This document shows positions 464 through 5,848 of a DNA stretch of 6,181 nt, piece by piece. How positions within the stretch are numbered: position 1 is the stretch's first letter; every line of letters begins with the position of its first letter. A program made the position numbers and the translations under genes. Source of the DNA: an uncultured Anaerolineaceae bacterium (GTDB lineage Bacteria > Chloroflexota > Anaerolineae > Promineifilales > Promineifilaceae); contig CALBTC010000076.1 of the NCBI GenBank assembly GCA_937967805.1, forward strand, positions 1-6,181. The letters run 5' to 3'. The notes beneath the pieces are model-generated. The model searched no databases and was not told the origin of the DNA. It saw only the letters and a list, made by a program, of their open reading frames with translations.

Positions 464-1273
464 TCAAAGTCGCCCCAGCAAACGCAGCGCCTGATCCGGA
501 AAGTCTGAAATCAACCCGTCTACGCCAATGTCGATGAGGCGCTGCATGTCGCTGGGCAGGTTTATCGTCCACACATGTACGGCAATGTTGTTGCGGTGTG
601 CCGAGCGGACCGAACGCGGCGTTACTAGCTGCACTCCGGAGCCGGGATCGATTGGCGGGATTTGCAGCACTTTTCCCTGCCCCCAATACAATCGTTCCAG
701 GCGCAGCCTATCCAGCACCAGCCAACGCAGCACCTCGGCATGGGAGGCGACGTGGGTCACTTCCGGGCAAGCTAGGCGAAACTCGGCTACGGTTTTGTTG
801 CTAAATGAACCGACACACAATCGATGAGAAACATTGTGTTGTCGGATGAGCTCGGCAAACGGCCGTACCAGACTCGGCCTCTCCTGCTTCATGTCGATGT
901 TGATCCACAGGTTGGGGAACGTTTCAAACACCTCAGCCAGCGTGGGGATGGTGATCCCCTGCCCGCGAAAGGGGAAGGTGTGCCCGCCGTCAGGGGTGAA
1001 GCGATAGCCGGCATCCAGTTGTTGCAGCTCAGCGAAGGTGTGGTTTTGGATACGGCCGTTGCCATCCGTTGTCCTGTCCACGGTTTCATCATGACACACC
1101 ACCAGCACGCCATCGGCCGTTTGGTGAATGTCAAGCTCCAGCCCGTCAATCGGCAGCTCCGCCGCCTTTTTAAAGGCCAACATCGTGTTTTCCGGGTACA
1201 GCCCACGCCAGCCGCGATGGGCCAGCACGACGACGCCACCCTGGTGGGCGAACGGTTTACTGGGTAGGCGCAT
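464..1273 (-). CDS. Glycerophosphodiester phosphodiesterase, cytosolic-type paralogue (GDPD-A)
   Basis: This protein of 269 residues is a GDPD-family TIM barrel that hydrolyses glycerophosphodiesters to sn-glycerol-3-phosphate and an alcohol, using a divalent metal. The family signature is intact: 'AHRG' (H19, R20) and 'PENT' (27-30), the metal pair E-x-D in 'ELDIH' (E46, D48), the second catalytic His in 'CHDETVDRTTDG' (H61), 'NIDMK' (125-129, with Asp127 where the third acidic ligand sits), and the C-terminal 'HVWTIN' (233-238) and 'GVDGLISDFP'. There is no signal peptide or membrane segment, so it is probably cytosolic and similar in role to UgpQ. The ATG at 1273 has no visible Shine-Dalgarno; the bases before it are the 7-bp tandem repeat of the spacer. 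Translation may depend on coupling to, or readthrough from, the upstream paralogue, 66 bp away on the same strand. The substrate head group cannot be told from sequence. Confidence 0.93.
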   Translation of the reverse strand: MRLPSKPFAHQGGVVVLAHRGWRGLYPENTMLAFKKAAELPIDGLELDIHQTADGVLVVCHDETVDRTTDGNGRIQNHTFAELQQLDAGYRFTPDGGHTFPFRGQGITIPTLAEVFETFPNLWINIDMKQERPSLVRPFAELIRQHNVSHRLCVGSFSNKTVAEFRLACPEVTHVASHAEVLRWLVLDRLRLERLYWGQGKVLQIPPIDPGSGVQLVTPRSVRSAHRNNIAVHVWTINLPSDMQRLIDIGVDGLISDFPDQALRLLGRL

Positions 1274-1314: not shown

Positions 1315-1344
1315 TTCACCTTGTCACCCCTTCACCTTGTCACC
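1315..1344. repeat. Direct repeat of TTCACCTTGTCACC, period 16
   Basis: Two exact 14-bp copies at 1315-1328 and 1331-1344 are separated by CC. Each copy is itself built of CACC/TCACC words. The right-hand copy contains the stop codon of GDPD-B (1340-1342). Confidence 0.85.
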
Positions 1345-2236
1345 TTATCAATTCCAAGAGCAAATCCGGCCGGTCGGTGATAATCCCATCCACTCCCAAG
1401 CCAATCAGTCGCTCCATTTCGGCGGGGTCGTTGATGGTCCAGGCATGCACTTGAATGTTGTGGCTGTGCGCCGCGTGGATGAAGCGTTCGGTCACCACGT
1501 CTACCTCGCCAATGAGGGGCAGCGATGAGGTGAGCGGCACCTGGAAAGCGGTGCCCGGAGCCTGGAAGAGTGCGCCGAGAAAGATGGTGTTCAGGCCAAA
1601 AAAGCGCTGGATTTCCGGCTCCACCATCGAAGTAAGCACATGAGGACATACTTCACGAAACTCTTCCATCGTCACCTGGTGGAAGGTGGCAACCAAAAGC
1701 TTTTCTTCCATATTATAATCGCGGATGAGCTGGCAGAACGGCCGTACCATGCTCGGCGTTTCTTGCTTAATCTCAATGTTCATCCGCATGTCCGGGTAGC
1801 GCTGGAACATCTCTTCCAGCGTCGGCACCTGGATGCCCTGGCCGCGGTAGGGAAAGGTTTCATCACCATCGTCGCTCCAGTAATAGCCCGCGTCCAGCTC
1901 GCGGATTTCGGCAAAGCTCATCTCTTTGATGGCGCCGCTACCGTCGGTGGTGCGGTCTACGGTGGCGTCGTGCATGAGGATGATGACGCCATCTTTGGTT
2001 TGGTGAATGTCCATCTCCAGTACATCCACGCCCAGCTCCACCGCGTGGTCAAAGGCCACCAGCGTGTTGCTGGGGCGCAGCCATTCGCCGCCCTGGTGGG
2101 CAATCACCATCACGCCGTCCTGCTGCGTAAAAAATGGATATTCCGGCACCGGCTGCGCCCGCCACGCCAGCGTGACGTACAGCACGGCCAACAAAATAAT
2201 CACCCCCAAACCAATCCGTATCTTTCGGCTCCTCAT
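1340..2236 (-). CDS. Membrane-anchored glycerophosphodiester phosphodiesterase paralogue (GDPD-B)
   Basis: This protein of 298 residues is a GDPD-family barrel behind an N-terminal basic-hydrophobic segment ('MRSRKIRIG', then hydrophobic to about residue 25), which reads as an uncleaved anchor or signal; the catalytic domain is probably outside the cytoplasmic membrane. Visible motifs are E74-x-D76 in 'EMDIH', H89 in 'MHDATVDRTTDG', 'NIEIK' (153-157) with Glu155, 'HAWTIN' and 'GVDGIITDRPD'. It departs from the classic signature at the first motif, where 'HRG' is 'HQG' (Q48) and 'PENT' is 'PSNT' (S56). The first catalytic His (H47) is kept, so activity is plausible but specificity may be altered; it may simply belong to a natural subfamily with this variant. 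It aligns with GDPD-A along the whole barrel (for example 'FPYRGQGI' against 'FPFRGQGI', 'MVRPF' against 'LVRPF'), so the pair is a tandem duplication. A good SD, GGAGAG (2247-2242), lies 5 nt before the ATG. Confidence 0.92.
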   Translation of the reverse strand: MRSRKIRIGLGVIILLAVLYVTLAWRAQPVPEYPFFTQQDGVMVIAHQGGEWLRPSNTLVAFDHAVELGVDVLEMDIHQTKDGVIILMHDATVDRTTDGSGAIKEMSFAEIRELDAGYYWSDDGDETFPYRGQGIQVPTLEEMFQRYPDMRMNIEIKQETPSMVRPFCQLIRDYNMEEKLLVATFHQVTMEEFREVCPHVLTSMVEPEIQRFFGLNTIFLGALFQAPGTAFQVPLTSSLPLIGEVDVVTERFIHAAHSHNIQVHAWTINDPAEMERLIGLGVDGIITDRPDLLLELIR

Positions 2237-2493: not shown

Positions 2494-2561
2494 CCAGTAA
2501 TCGGTAGACCATAATCCGTAAACCGTTTACCGATTACCGACCACCGATTACCGAATACTGG
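2494..2561 (+). promoter_or_regulatory. Repeat-built structured 5' leader that can pair with the SD
   Basis: CCAGTA (2494-2499) pairs with TACTGG (2556-2561), and after one A-A mismatch TCGGT (2501-2505) pairs with ACCGA (2550-2554), giving an 11-bp stem that covers the GG of the GGAG Shine-Dalgarno (2560-2563). A smaller hairpin GTAAA-ccg-TTTAC (2518-2530) sits in the loop. A direct repeat of ACCGATTACCGA (2529-2540 and 2543-2554) gives two alternative partners for GTAATCGGT (2497-2505), which would leave the SD free. It is not a recognisable cobalamin riboswitch: it is too short and I see no B12-box-like sequence. The repeat could also be a chance insertion of a common intergenic word. Confidence 0.4.
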
Positions 2562-2569
2562 AGATAAAA

Positions 2570-3676
2570 ATGGCACGTCGAGCAGTCTTTCCCTTCACAG
2601 CAATCGTCGGACAGGAACGTATGAAACGGGCGTTGATCCTCAACGCCGTCAGCCCCCAGATTGGTGGCGTCCTCATCCGGGGCGAACGCGGTACCGCTAA
2701 ATCCACCGCCTCCCGCGCCCTGGCCGCCCTCCTGCCGGACATCGAAACCGTTGCCGACTGCCGCTTTGGCTGCGACCCCAACCGTCCCGGCCAATGGTGC
2801 GACGAGTGCCGCGTACGCCATGCCGATGGCGCGCTACAAGTGTCCACCCGCCGCACCCCCTTTGTCGATCTGCCCGTCAGCGCCACCGAAGACCGCGTGG
2901 TGGGCACGCTGGACATCGAAAAAGCTATCCAGAAAGGTGAAAAACATTTTGAAGCAGGTGTGCTCGCCGCTGCCAACCGGGGTTTGCTCTACGTCGATGA
3001 GGTCAACTTGCTGGATGATCACGTCGTCGATCTGCTGCTCGATTCGGCGGCGATGGGCGTGAACGTTGTCGAGCGTGAGGGGATCAGCTTTACCCATCCT
3101 GCCAAATTTATCCTCGTCGGCACGATGAATCCCGAAGAAGGCGATTTACGACCGCAGCTCCTGGACCGCTTCGCCTTTTCTGTGCACATCTCCGGCCTCA
3201 GCAACGCCCACCAGCGTGTTTCCATCATGGAGCGGCGCATCAATTTTGAAGTCAACCCCGACGGCTTCCGCGAAGAGTGGGAAGCATCAGAAAAGCAGAT
3301 GGCCGACCAGATTTGCGCTGCCCGCGAAATGGTTAATACAGTGAAATATTCGCGGCGCGACCTGCACTCTATCGCCGGGCTGACCAGCGCCATGAACGTC
3401 GATGGCCACCGCGCTGACCTGGTAATTTTGCGCGGGGCGCAGGCCCACGCCGCCTTCCAGGGGCGCGCCCACATCACCGATGAAGATATCGTCCTGGCGG
3501 CCGAACTGGCCTTACCGCACCGCATTAAGGGACGGCCGTTCCAGGACACCGCCATCTCCGCCGCCGACCTCGAAGAAAAGCTGGAAGACGCACAGGCCGA
3601 AATGGGCATGGGCGAACCCAGCGACGACCCCATGGATGACACCGTTGACCAGCAGGACGTAAAAAAAAAGCCTTAG
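2570..3676 (+). CDS. chlI: ChlI-like AAA+ chelatase ATPase (zero-frame product of the chlID locus)
   Basis: This 368-residue protein is an AAA+ ATPase of the BchI/ChlI family, the motor subunit that drives metal insertion into a tetrapyrrole together with a D-type subunit and a large ChlH/CobN-type subunit. Visible motifs are 'FTAIVGQE' (9-16), Walker A 'GERGTAKST' (38-46), Walker B 'LLYVDE' (139-144), sensor-1 'GTMNPEEG' (184-191), arginine finger 'LLDRF' (197-201) and 'SRRDL' (261-265) in the sensor-2 region. A four-cysteine cluster C64-x3-C68-x8-C77-x2-C80 lies in the insert after Walker A; I recall it from ChlI/D-type proteins of cobalamin producers, and it could bind zinc. Residues from about 333 are acidic linker, not catalytic domain, and the frame ends 'VKKKP' two codons after the A9 run. 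The start is well supported by GGAG at 2560-2563. All ATPase motifs are intact, so this product could serve as the small subunit by itself. Confidence 0.9.
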   Translation: MARRAVFPFTAIVGQERMKRALILNAVSPQIGGVLIRGERGTAKSTASRALAALLPDIETVADCRFGCDPNRPGQWCDECRVRHADGALQVSTRRTPFVDLPVSATEDRVVGTLDIEKAIQKGEKHFEAGVLAAANRGLLYVDEVNLLDDHVVDLLLDSAAMGVNVVEREGISFTHPAKFILVGTMNPEEGDLRPQLLDRFAFSVHISGLSNAHQRVSIMERRINFEVNPDGFREEWEASEKQMADQICAAREMVNTVKYSRRDLHSIAGLTSAMNVDGHRADLVILRGAQAHAAFQGRAHITDEDIVLAAELALPHRIKGRPFQDTAISAADLEEKLEDAQAEMGMGEPSDDPMDDTVDQQDVKKKP

Positions 3677-3704
3677 ACTCGGATGAAGCCAGCGACGGCG
3701 CCGA
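3654..3704 (+). promoter_or_regulatory. Candidate programmed -1 frameshift site joining ChlI and ChlD parts
   Basis: In the ChlI frame the codons GTA-AAA-AAA-AAG-CCT-TAG contain the classic -1 slippery heptamer A-AAA-AAG (3664-3670) inside nine A residues (3661-3669). The -1 frame has a TGA at 3646-3648 and the zero frame ends at 3674-3676, so the only window in which the shift can occur is 3649-3673, and it holds the heptamer. An SD-like AGGA (3654-3657) lies 6 nt upstream. Eight nt downstream an interrupted stem can form: TCGG/CCGA (3679-3682 with 3701-3704) around GCC/GGC (3688-3690 with 3697-3699). The shift gives a 685-residue fusion (367 residues plus 318). The competing explanations are RNA-polymerase slippage on A9 or a one-base error in the run, since ten A residues would make the gene continuous. 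Confidence 0.72.
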
Positions 3705-4626
3705 AACCAGCCAGCAGGCAGAGGCCGGCCCTCAAACCGTGCCCCAATCTGCCCAGGAAGGCCAATGGTGGGAAGGTGGCCAAAAGGTACAATCCAAACA
3801 AGAGTTTATGGCCCGCCGCCTGGACACCCAGCTAGACCGCCTCACCCGCAAATCGGCCGGACGCCGCTCCCAGACCAAGACCGAACGCAAACGCGGCCGT
3901 TACGTGCAATCCCGCGTCCCCAAAGGCAAAGTCACCGACCTCGCCTTCGACGCCACCTTCCGCGCGGCGGCCCCCTACCAGAAAGAGCGCGACCGTTCCG
4001 AACTGGCCCTGGCCCTGGAAAAAAGCGACCTGCGCGAAAAGGTGCGCGTGCGCCGCGCCGCCAACCTCATCCTCTTTGCCGTGGATGCCAGTTGGAGCAT
4101 GGCCGTTGCCGAACGCATGGAAGCGACCAAAGGGGCCATCATGTCCCTGCTCACCGACGCTTACCAGCGGCGCGACCGCGTCGGGCTGATTGTCTTCAAC
4201 AAAAACGATTCCAACCTGGTGTTGCCCCCCACCAATTCGGTACAGCTCGCTAAAAAAGCGCTGGCCGACATCGCCGTGGGCGGCAAGACACCACTCTCTG
4301 CCGGACTAATGATGGCCTATGACGTCTTCCGCCAGGAATCATTCACCCATCCAGACGTAATGCCCATGCTCATTCTGCTGACCGACGGCGCGGGCAACGT
4401 CAGCCTGAGCGACCTGCCGCCGCAGGAAGAGGCCCACCGCATTGCCGAACTCATCAAGGAAGCAGGTGTGCGCTCCGTCGTCATCAACATGGAGCACGCC
4501 GCCTTCGACCAGGGTCTGGCCAAGCTGCTGGCCGAAAAGCTGGAAGCCCCCTGCCACACCTTGGAAGACCTCCGTGCCGACACGCTCTACCAGACCGTCT
4601 TAGGCGAGCTCGACAACAAAAAATAA
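3670..4626 (+). CDS. chlD: ChlD-like VWA half of the chelatase, read in the -1 frame
   Basis: This is the C-terminal part of a ChlD/BchD-type medium subunit, the scaffold that holds the AAA+ ring to the large chelatase subunit. It begins with a low-complexity acidic/Gln-rich linker, then a basic stretch with the family-typical 'GRRS', 'RGRYV' and 'LAFDATFRAAAP', then a von Willebrand A domain. The MIDAS residues are present: 'DASWS' (fusion residues 506-510), Thr574 in 'GGKTPL' and Asp606 in 'LLTDG'. Spacing and order match full-length ChlD, and the 685-residue fusion is close to the usual length. I see no good independent start: the first possible one is GTG 3739 without an SD, the first ATG is 3808 with only a weak AAGAG close by, and either would lose the AAA+ half. 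It is therefore best read as the frameshifted extension of the preceding frame. The stop codon TAA (4624-4626) overlaps the left end of an inverted repeat. Confidence 0.85.
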   Translation, partial: ALDSDEASDGAETSQQAEAGPQTVPQSAQEGQWWEGGQKVQSKQEFMARRLDTQLDRLTRKSAGRRSQTKTERKRGRYVQSRVPKGKVTDLAFDATFRAAAPYQKERDRSELALALEKSDLREKVRVRRAANLILFAVDASWSMAVAERMEATKGAIMSLLTDAYQRRDRVGLIVFNKNDSNLVLPPTNSVQLAKKALADIAVGGKTPLSAGLMMAYDVFRQESFTHPDVMPMLILLTDGAGNVSLSDLPPQEEAHRIAELIKEAGVRSVVINMEHAAFDQGLAKLLAEKLEAPCHTLEDLRADTLYQTVLGELDNKK

Positions 4627-4712
4627 ATCACGAATGAAACGAATAGACGAATGAACACGAATAATAAATAGCAAAATTCGTCTCATTCGTTCGTTCGTCC
4701 AATTCGTGATTT
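4625..4712. repeat. Large imperfect inverted repeat of ACGAAT / ATTCGT words after chlD
   Basis: The left arm (4625-4662) and right arm (4676-4712) are imperfect reverse complements around a 13-nt A-rich loop. The outer 11 bp, AAATCACGAAT with ATTCGTGATTT, pair perfectly, and so do the inner ACGAAT / ATTCGT ends. Both arms repeat ACGAAT or ATTCGT several times. It begins inside the chlD stop codon, and TTTGCTTTTCT follows the right arm, so the transcript could fold into a long hairpin that ends transcription or protects the 3' end. No ORF or transposase lies inside, so it is a miniature or interspersed-type repeat rather than an insertion sequence. Confidence 0.75.
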
Positions 4713-4801: not shown

Positions 4802-5848
4802 ATGTCCACTGTTCCGACTTTACCCGGCATTACGTCCCAAATAGTGCAAACCGATCGTTTAAATGTTCATGTCCTCTCTTGCGGTCCCGAGGAAGGCACC
4901 CCGGTTATTTTTGTTCACGGCAACGTTTCTTCCGCCACCTACTGGGAAGAAACCATGCTAGCCCTGCCAGAAGGCTATCGTGGCATTGCTGTAGACTTGC
5001 GCGGCTATGGCGACACGGAACCGCTGCCCATCAGCGGCGCTACCGGCATGGCCGACTTTGCTACCGACGTGCGCTCCGTTGTAGAGACGCTGGGGCTGGG
5101 CAAACACCACATCGTGGGGCACAGCATGGGTGGCGGTGTGGTGATGCTGTATGCCATCAACCATGCGTCCGATTTGCTTTCCATCACTTTAGCCGACCCC
5201 ATTTCACCCTATGGCTACGGTGGCTCCAAGGGCGCGGATGGCAAGATGGTATACGATGACGGTGCACCCAGCGGCATCAATCCGGAATTTGTGGAGCTGC
5301 TGGCCAACGGCGAGCGCGGCCTTGAAAACCCCATGTCGCCCCGCAACGTGCTGCGCGGTTTTTACGTGAAGCCGCCATTCATCCCAGCCCGTGAAGAGGC
5401 GCTGCTAAGCTCCATGCTCACTACCAAAGTCGGGGATGACTGGTATCCGGGCAACGCGGTGCCTTCGAATAACTGGCCCGGCGCGGCTCCCGGTGACAAA
5501 GGGGTGTTGCCCGCCTTCAATCGCAAAAACTTTGATGCCAGCGGGCTGGCCAATATCGATCCCAAACCACCTATTTTGTGGGTGCGCGGCGCGGACGATT
5601 TGATTGTTTCTGATTACGCCATGTTTGATTTGGCGGCGCTAGGACATATGGGGGCGGTCCCCGGCTGGCCCGGCAATGAGGAATGTCCTCCCCAGCCGAT
5701 GCTGGCTCAAACCCGTGCCGTGCTGGACAGCTATGCAGCCAATGGCGGCAGCTATCGAGAAGAAGTGATTGAGGATGCCGGGCACTCGCCTTATCTGGAG
5801 AAACCGGAGGAATTTAACGCGCTGTTTCATGCACATTTGGCTGGGTAA
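4802..5848 (+). CDS. Alpha/beta-hydrolase fold protein
   Basis: This 348-residue protein has the alpha/beta-hydrolase core of esterases, epoxide hydrolases and related enzymes. Visible features are the oxyanion-hole strand 'VIFVHGN' (35-41), 'AVDLRGYGDT' (63-72), the nucleophile elbow 'GHSMGG' with Ser108, the acid in 'RGADDLIVS' (Asp265 or Asp266) and the catalytic His328 in 'DAGHSPYLEKP'. A long cap-like insertion runs from about residue 134 to 250, rich in Gly, Pro and Asn. There is no signal peptide, so it is probably cytosolic. The nucleophile is Ser, which argues against Asp-type epoxide hydrolases and haloalkane dehalogenases. The substrate is unknown, and neither neighbour suggests a pathway. 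It is separated from chlD by the inverted repeat and has its own SD, so it is likely a single-gene unit ending at the terminator at 5874-5910. The stop TAA shares two bases with an AACGGCCGTT palindrome. Confidence 0.92.
   Translation: MSTVPTLPGITSQIVQTDRLNVHVLSCGPEEGTPVIFVHGNVSSATYWEETMLALPEGYRGIAVDLRGYGDTEPLPISGATGMADFATDVRSVVETLGLGKHHIVGHSMGGGVVMLYAINHASDLLSITLADPISPYGYGGSKGADGKMVYDDGAPSGINPEFVELLANGERGLENPMSPRNVLRGFYVKPPFIPAREEALLSSMLTTKVGDDWYPGNAVPSNNWPGAAPGDKGVLPAFNRKNFDASGLANIDPKPPILWVRGADDLIVSDYAMFDLAALGHMGAVPGWPGNEECPPQPMLAQTRAVLDSYAANGGSYREEVIEDAGHSPYLEKPEEFNALFHAHLAG

What the first reader, a model, noticed from the sequence alone, without database searches (positions are those of the whole stretch)
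2570..4626. One chelatase locus, two subunits: ChlI and ChlI-ChlD through -1 frameshifting at A9
Seen: intact ChlI-type ATPase in one frame, VWA/MIDAS domain open in the -1 frame, the frames overlapping only in 3649-3673, where the in-frame heptamer A-AAA-AAG lies. The zero-frame stop comes two codons later, an SD-like AGGA lies upstream, a modest stem lies 8 nt downstream, and the second half has no credible own start. Known: programmed frameshifting in chlD genes has been reported (Antonov, Mol Biol Evol 2020, from memory) as a way for cobalamin producers lacking a separate small-subunit gene to make both cobalt-chelatase subunits. Inferred: this is such a case.
Basis: partly seen in the sequence, partly recalled or inferred. 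Interest (0 to 1): 0.85.

Follow-up and report, generated by a model that had tools for sequence, protein, structure and literature searches.

The report
Two proteins from one slippery gene
A bacterial gene makes both a short and a long version of a chelatase-type motor protein, most likely because RNA polymerase stutters on a run of nine A's that related bacteria have kept.

Summary
In detail: an intact ChlI-type ATPase (2570-3676) and a VWA/MIDAS half open in the -1 frame (3649-4626) overlap only around an A9 run (3661-3669). It is no sequencing error: 75 of 78 relatives with both halves show the same break at an A8-A10 run. Such two-product genes (fs-chlD) are published, also for Chloroflexi. 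(1) Mechanism: the run stays A9-A10 through at least 15 changes of codon phase and 6 of frame layout on one quick tree. Stops close both other frames, the window has no stem better than shuffles, and ten single-frame orthologues keep the run too. This fits transcriptional slippage (as in Thermus dnaX) better than ribosomal -1 shifting. The A7-A8 minority looks ribosomal: 18 of 18 split sites in heptamer phase, 9 of 18 with a favourable downstream fold. (2) Function: the CobN/BchH large subunit is in 3 of 50 relatives' genomes (two are BchH), the corrin gene cbiC in 1 of 35, a second ChlI-like gene in 30 of 35. A cobalt chelatase is therefore unlikely. Slippage is inferred, not measured.

The parts
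2559..2565 (+). SD-like TGGAGAT before the ATG at 2570
   Evidence: read directly from the sequence
2570..3676 (+). zero-frame ORF, ChlI-type AAA+ ATPase, 368 aa (short product)
   Evidence: AAA_lid_2, Mg_chelatase; TIGR02442 N half; PDB ChlI 8osf, E 5.7e-99
2681..2704 (+). Walker A GERGTAKS
   Evidence: read from the translation; motif name recalled
2984..3001 (+). Walker B LLYVDE
   Evidence: read from the translation; motif name recalled
3661..3669 (+). A9 run; the proposed transcriptional slippage site
3664..3670 (+). in-frame heptamer A-AAA-AAG (alternative ribosomal site)
3674..3676 (+). zero-frame stop TAG (ends ChlI from A9 transcripts)
3684..3686 (+). third-frame stop TGA (would end products of A8 or A11 transcripts)
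3649..4626 (+). -1-frame opening: linker plus VWA domain (second half of the predicted 685-aa long product)
   Evidence: (PDB 2x31 BchD)
4084..4098 (+). MIDAS DASWS (DxSxS) of the VWA domain
   Evidence: read from the translation; motif name recalled

Best explanation
A Chloroflexota fs-chlD gene expressed by programmed transcriptional slippage. RNA polymerase slips on the A9 run. Faithful A9 transcripts give the 368-aa ChlI-like ATPase. Transcripts with one extra A give a 685-aa ChlI-VWA protein with no ribosomal trick. A8 and A11 transcripts give 371- and 372-aa ChlI forms. Shown: frames, conservation of the run, its independence of codon phase, stops in the other frames, no stem in the window. 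Inferred: that slippage occurs in the cell, its rate, and that both proteins join in one AAA+/VWA complex, which in this lineage probably serves something other than cobalt insertion.
For: 1) Length, not phase, is kept. Of 116 split -1 sites, 98 have A9 or A10, in phases 18/29/51; among A9-A10 sites phase changed at least 15 times and frame layout at least 6 times on one quick tree. 2) All 108 A/T runs of 9 or more in 1,614,188 b of 149 loci lie at this site, 0 elsewhere; A8 8 on and 18 off, A7 13 on and 137 off. The loci were chosen because they hold the gene, and from A7 and A8 I would expect only 2-3 off-site A9, so the weight lies on the site's own length. 3) Both other frames stop within 10 codons in 94 of 105 split A8+ genes against 8.1% of codon shuffles, and in 9 of 10 single-frame A8+ genes against 10%. 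PMC5009743 (passages) describes such dual stops for Thermus dnaX. 4) Ten single-frame orthologues keep A8-A10 at this place, where no shift is needed for the long product. 5) A9-A10 sites lack a stem (mean z -0.24, control -0.22); A7-A8 sites average -2.40, all 18 sit in one heptamer phase, and 5 of 18 have a third-frame stop within 6 codons against 79 of 98. 6) PMC1088944 (passages): A9 of Thermus dnaX slips; PMC3711429 (passages): realignment sites are often homopolymers of eight or longer.
Against: No RNA data. Direction is nearly constant (116 -1, one +1 among split genes with a run); by the rule of PMC3711429 that points to ribosomal shifting, though slippage that adds one A also predicts -1. 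Every phase still contains A-AAA-AAA. Split A7 genes also have both other frames closed within 10 codons in 9 of 11 (shuffles 6.3%); by the count only 3 of 11 have a third-frame stop within 10, six related rows lying at 11, so the stop contrast depends on the threshold. SD-like stretches upstream of split A8+ sites are somewhat enriched (5-mers 8 of 105 against 3%, 4-mers 24 of 105 against 11%). A relative's genome (G002, a MAG) shows only tRNA-Lys UUU among 42 tRNAs, so the two-tRNA-Lys argument made for Thermus does not carry over. Mean z of long sites depends on the stretch folded (-0.24 to -0.74; -0.85 for A8+ over 60 nt against -0.21 control). Short and long sites switch only 4 times on the tree; 3-4 independent pairs cannot reach significance. 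One single-frame A8 gene (L131) is not in the heptamer phase of the other short sites.
Confidence: 0.63

Rival explanations
1. Programmed ribosomal -1 frameshifting at A-AAA-AAG/A-AAA-AAA, as reported for chlD of other taxa; the A9 length is incidental or adds efficiency.
For: Heptamer present and in frame. Direction -1 in 116 of 117 split genes with a run. Published chlD sites are A_AAA_AAR under purifying selection, with up to 63% shifting in E. coli tests (passages). A7-A8 relatives look ribosomal. Only tRNA-Lys UUU seen in one relative. Slight SD-like enrichment at A8+ sites.
Against: No stem in the window; AGGA kept in L001 but not in L002, L004, L005. It does not explain why A9-A10 is kept in all three phases or why ten single-frame orthologues keep the run with both other frames closed in 9 of 10.
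Confidence: 0.27
2. Two separate genes: the VWA half is started internally (GTG 3739 or ATG 3808) or by coupling to the zero-frame stop.
For: In-frame starts between the run and the VWA core exist in 113 of 116 split loci (79 with ATG); 46 have an SD-like stretch before one.
Against: Start distance varies and 37 of 116 have no ATG. 26 of 148 relatives are one continuous frame. It leaves the A run unexplained.
Confidence: 0.05
3. A homopolymer sequencing or assembly error, or a broken gene.
For: Homopolymers are error-prone; the single-frame A10 genes L027 and L040 and the +1 gene L062 could be such errors.
Against: 75 of 78 relatives' loci carry the same break, and protein matches cover both halves.
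Confidence: 0.02

Closest known systems
fs-chlD genes (PMC3711429, passages seen; PMC9227772, parts 1-3 of 4 read; Antonov 2020 msaa081, not held, recalled)
   Same: ChlI and ChlI-VWA from one gene with a frame break at an A-rich site; PMC9227772 already names Chloroflexi (Anaerolineaceae, Brevefilum) and cases without large subunit
   Different: Published reading is ribosomal shifting, usually with a downstream structure; here A9-A10 in any codon phase, no stem in the window, both other frames closed, and slippery single-frame orthologues
Thermus thermophilus dnaX (transcriptional slippage at A9)
   Same: Run of nine A's in the sense strand, stops in both other frames, two products that differ by a C-terminal part (passages)
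   Different: In Thermus dnaX the long product is in the template frame; here the short one is, as in the two-ORF dnaX genes with 7-10 A's of PMC3711429. Unrelated gene; slippage not measured here
Mg-chelatase BchI/BchD
   Same: Sequence matches to ChlI 8osf/6l8d/1g8p and BchD 2x31
   Different: There separate genes working with BchH (recalled); no PF02514 match in 47 of 50 relatives' genomes

Membership tests
fs-chlD two-product genes | ChlI half and VWA half in overlapping frames, both conserved | tested here: met
fs-chlD two-product genes | A-rich slippery site in the overlap, conserved | tested here: met
fs-chlD two-product genes | stimulatory RNA structure downstream (called usual in PMC9227772, so not obligatory) | tested here: not met
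   window z +0.5 and -0.17; z below -1.5 in 9 of 18 A7-A8 and about 11% of 98 A9-A10 split sites
aerobic cobalt chelatase (CobN with ChlI/ChlD) | cobN and corrin pathway in the genome | tested here: inconclusive
   own genome not held; relatives: PF02514 in 3 of 50, CbiC in 1 of 35
aerobic cobalt chelatase (CobN with ChlI/ChlD) | no separate small-subunit gene | tested here: inconclusive
   relatives: second ChlI-like gene in 30 of 35; own genome not held
programmed transcriptional slippage genes | A/T homopolymer of 8 or more, kept | tested here: met
programmed transcriptional slippage genes | site independent of codon phase | tested here: met
   phases 18/29/51 at A9-A10, at least 15 changes on one quick tree
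programmed transcriptional slippage genes | stops in both other frames (as in Thermus dnaX) | tested here: met
programmed transcriptional slippage genes | shift direction not conserved among orthologues (rule in PMC3711429) | tested here: not met
   116 -1 and 1 +1 among split genes with a run, though 12 single-frame genes also keep one
programmed transcriptional slippage genes | heterogeneous mRNA at the run | not testable with these tools
   no RNA data
TIGR02442 Cob-chelat-sub | whole-protein score over 779.45 | tested here: inconclusive
   halves scored apart: 500.2 and 267 bits; the joined protein was not scored

The most novel reading that the evidence does not exclude
Across Chloroflexota one AAA+/VWA gene is kept slippery at the level of RNA polymerase: the length of the A run is selected while its codon phase and even the gene's frame layout drift. 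Single-frame 'fused' chlD genes with the run thus also make ChlI. Lineages whose run shortens to A7-A8 fall back on ribosomal shifting, with the heptamer in phase and, in about half of the sites, a hairpin. In most of the window's lineage the pair works without any chelatase large subunit.
Probability: 0.47. Interest if true: 0.68.

Novelty: new variant of a known kind. Interest (0 to 1): 0.5.

Why it matters
It would move a published frameshift family, in this phylum, from the ribosome to the RNA polymerase, and show one gene switching between the two within a phylum (dnaX is known to use both in different species, PMC3711429 passages). It predicts that orthologues annotated as ordinary fused genes make two proteins. 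It also gives a testable case for the open question of what ChlI/ChlD pairs do without CobN or ChlH.

Tried and rejected
Rejected: sequencing error or pseudogene; separate gene with internal start as the main route; a conserved operon that would name the function. Neighbours vary: DnaN-like in 20 of 79 loci, GDPD in 14, DAHP synthase in 13 (named from one representative each). Rejected: protein-level selection for lysines as the cause of the run; AAG is 43% of lysine codons elsewhere in the same genes, and the encoded peptide varies (VKKKP, EKKT, KKKVS). Led nowhere: plasmid search gave only distant chelatases (37 records, none over 60% identity); Rfam gave no match in the window; the tRNA-Lys census found UUU alone and does not help slippage. 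Not usable: Antonov 2020 is not held, so whether it discusses slippage for these genes is unknown to me. Rows left out: L037 and L042 and L148 lack the ChlI half; L085 and L086 repeat L002 and L029; L133, L153 and L154 have no run of 7 or more and are perhaps separate bchI/bchD-type genes (L154 lies beside a large-subunit match; the other two not looked into). The 40 loci were picked by me from the list, which is itself cut; the 50 and 35 genomes were picked by me from those behind the 80 loci.

Full report
What is there. The window holds an intact ChlI-type ATPase (2570-3676) and, in the -1 frame, a linker and VWA domain with a DASWS MIDAS motif (open 3649-4626). The two halves match consecutive parts of one family model, TIGR02442, and solved ChlI and BchD chains by sequence. 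The frames overlap only around nine A's at 3661-3669. The window's own genome is not held.

Is it real. A genome-contig scan with the VWA half found 392 relatives and kept the best 80; their titles name Chloroflexota groups (Anaerolineae, Ardenticatenia, Promineifilum, Thermoflexus and the like; placement recalled). Both halves lie in 78 of 80: 75 split at -1, 2 in one frame, 1 at +1. L001, at 98% (ChlI) and 99% (VWA) protein identity, has the same A9. The break is therefore a conserved feature.

Wider set. Thirty loci from a search of 301 genomes of the phylum (135 with a match) and 40 picked from its list were added. Of 151 loci including the window, 148 have both halves: 119 at -1, 3 at +1, 26 in one frame. 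After two duplicates were dropped, 129 sites have a run of 7 or more A's: 116 split -1, one +1, 12 single-frame.

The run behaves like a polymerase site. At split -1 sites the lengths are A7 11, A8 7, A9 81, A10 17. At the 98 A9-A10 sites the base after the run lies in codon position 1, 2 or 3 in 18, 29 and 51 cases. On a quick tree of 144 ChlI halves (42 of 139 inner branches weak) the phase changed at least 17 times overall, and at least 15 times among A9-A10 sites in the tree. A ribosomal A-AAA-AAG needs only six A's in the window's phase, yet none of the 51 split sites in that phase has fewer than nine. In 1,614,188 bases of 149 loci every A/T run of nine or more (108) is at this site, none elsewhere; A8 8 on and 18 off, A7 13 on and 137 off. 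The loci were chosen because they hold the gene, and only a few off-site A9 would be expected anyway.

Other frames are closed. Among split genes with A8 or more, both other frames stop within 10 codons in 94 of 105, against 8.1% after shuffling the downstream codons. In the window these are TAG 3674 and TGA 3684. Ten single-frame genes keep A8-A10, and in 9 of 10 both other frames stop within 10 codons, against 10%. Fourteen more distant single-frame relatives have no run of 7 or more. PMC5009743 (passages) describes this dual-stop layout for Thermus dnaX, and PMC1088944 (passages) its A9 run. Split A7 genes also pass the 10-codon test in 9 of 11; by the count six related rows lie at 11 codons in the third frame.

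A second class. The 18 split sites with A7-A8 differ. All 18 lie in the phase A_AAA_AAA|G. Their downstream 45-nt folds average z -2.40 against -0.24 at A9-A10 sites (Mann-Whitney p 1.3e-7; control stretches +0.13 and -0.22); 9 of 18 are below -1.5. Third-frame stops within 6 codons are 5 of 18 against 79 of 98. Hairpins are plain in L063, L080, L113, L115 and L116, whereas L121-L126 are weak (z near -1). These sites look ribosomal, like the published chlD cases. The rows are related: there are only four switches, and 3-4 independent pairs lean the same way without reaching significance. With other stretches z is -1.40 to -2.15 against -0.24 to -0.74. Cut to 38 clusters at 80% identity, the long class has 30 and the short class only 2 split representatives. 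Of the three single-frame genes with A7-A8, L097 and L101 share the phase and L131 does not.

Against this reading. Direction is almost always -1, which the rule in PMC3711429 (passages) reads as ribosomal. SD-like stretches are mildly enriched before A8+ sites. There are no RNA data. One relative's 42 tRNAs show only tRNA-Lys UUU. I put polymerase slippage at 0.63 and ribosomal shifting alone at 0.27; both may act.

Function. The large subunit PF02514 is in 3 of 50 relatives' genomes. Two are BchH, lying between a ChlI match and a 614- or 628-aa frame that also matches ChlI, probably ChlD. The third is a CobN-like fragment in the one genome with CbiC. CbiC is in 1 of 35. A second ChlI-like gene is in 30 of 35 (not in G009, G011, G023, G039, G048); the one whose surroundings I listed, in G002, has no VWA half beside it. 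In 50 further genomes PF02514 is in 18 and CbiC in 7. PF02514 is in 0 of the first 26 listed (G122 to G265). It is in 7 of 8 tested genomes with a split A7 gene (all but G120). Of the genomes with single-frame slippery genes, G309, G287, G062, G344, G295, G263 and G027 have it, and G122, G325, G257, G241 and G039 do not. MAGs are incomplete, but the pattern speaks against a cobalt chelatase in the window's lineage. PMC9227772 (parts 1-3 of 4 read) already reports such Chloroflexi fs-chlD genes without large subunit and calls the function unknown. By analogy with AAA+/VWA pairs (recalled) I expect a remodelling or metal-loading role.

Novelty. The two-product gene is known. Searches for slippage with magnesium chelatase, with chlD, with Chloroflexi, and realignment with chelatase listed no paper that proposes slippage for chlD in its title or the start of its abstract. 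In PMC9227772 the one 'transcriptional slippage' counted is a reference title; in PMC3711429 I saw only the passages. Antonov 2020 was not available.

Recall only: contig lengths suggest L126 Herpetosiphon aurantiacus, L128 Roseiflexus RS-1 and L131 Chloroflexus aggregans.

Noticed in passing
window 859, 1052, 1738, 2452, 3532, 5848: Palindrome ACGGCCGT occurs 6 times (expected 0.12). In L001-L036 it occurs 569 times in 563,362 b against 11.6 expected (49-fold; next octamer palindrome 3-fold), but 12 times in 674,400 b of L038-L080 and 0 in 122,618 b of L119-L137: a clade-specific highly iterated palindrome, like cyanobacterial HIP1 (name recalled). A search for 'highly iterated palindrome' with Chloroflexi found no paper; of 196 papers holding the letters, the 10 listed are on other matters by title.
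   Followed up: partly
window 464-1273 and 1340-2236, minus strand: Two tandem glycerophosphodiester phosphodiesterase genes (PF03009), probably a duplication; GDPD-family genes lie near the chelatase gene in 14 of 79 loci, the window included.
   Followed up: no
window 4802-5848: Alpha/beta hydrolase; weak match to BchO (TIGR03056, 38.9 bits, cut-off 172.55), so no evidence for a chlorophyll link.
   Followed up: no
genomes behind L113-L116 and L119-L137: The CobN/BchH large subunit is common in the branch of L119-L137 and in the A7-plus-hairpin genomes of L113-L116, but rare among the 50 tested relatives nearer the window.
   Followed up: partly
window 4627-4710: AT-rich stretch with inverted copies ATCACGAAT (4627) and ATTCGTGAT (4702) just after the gene; possible terminator or small mobile repeat.
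   Followed up: no
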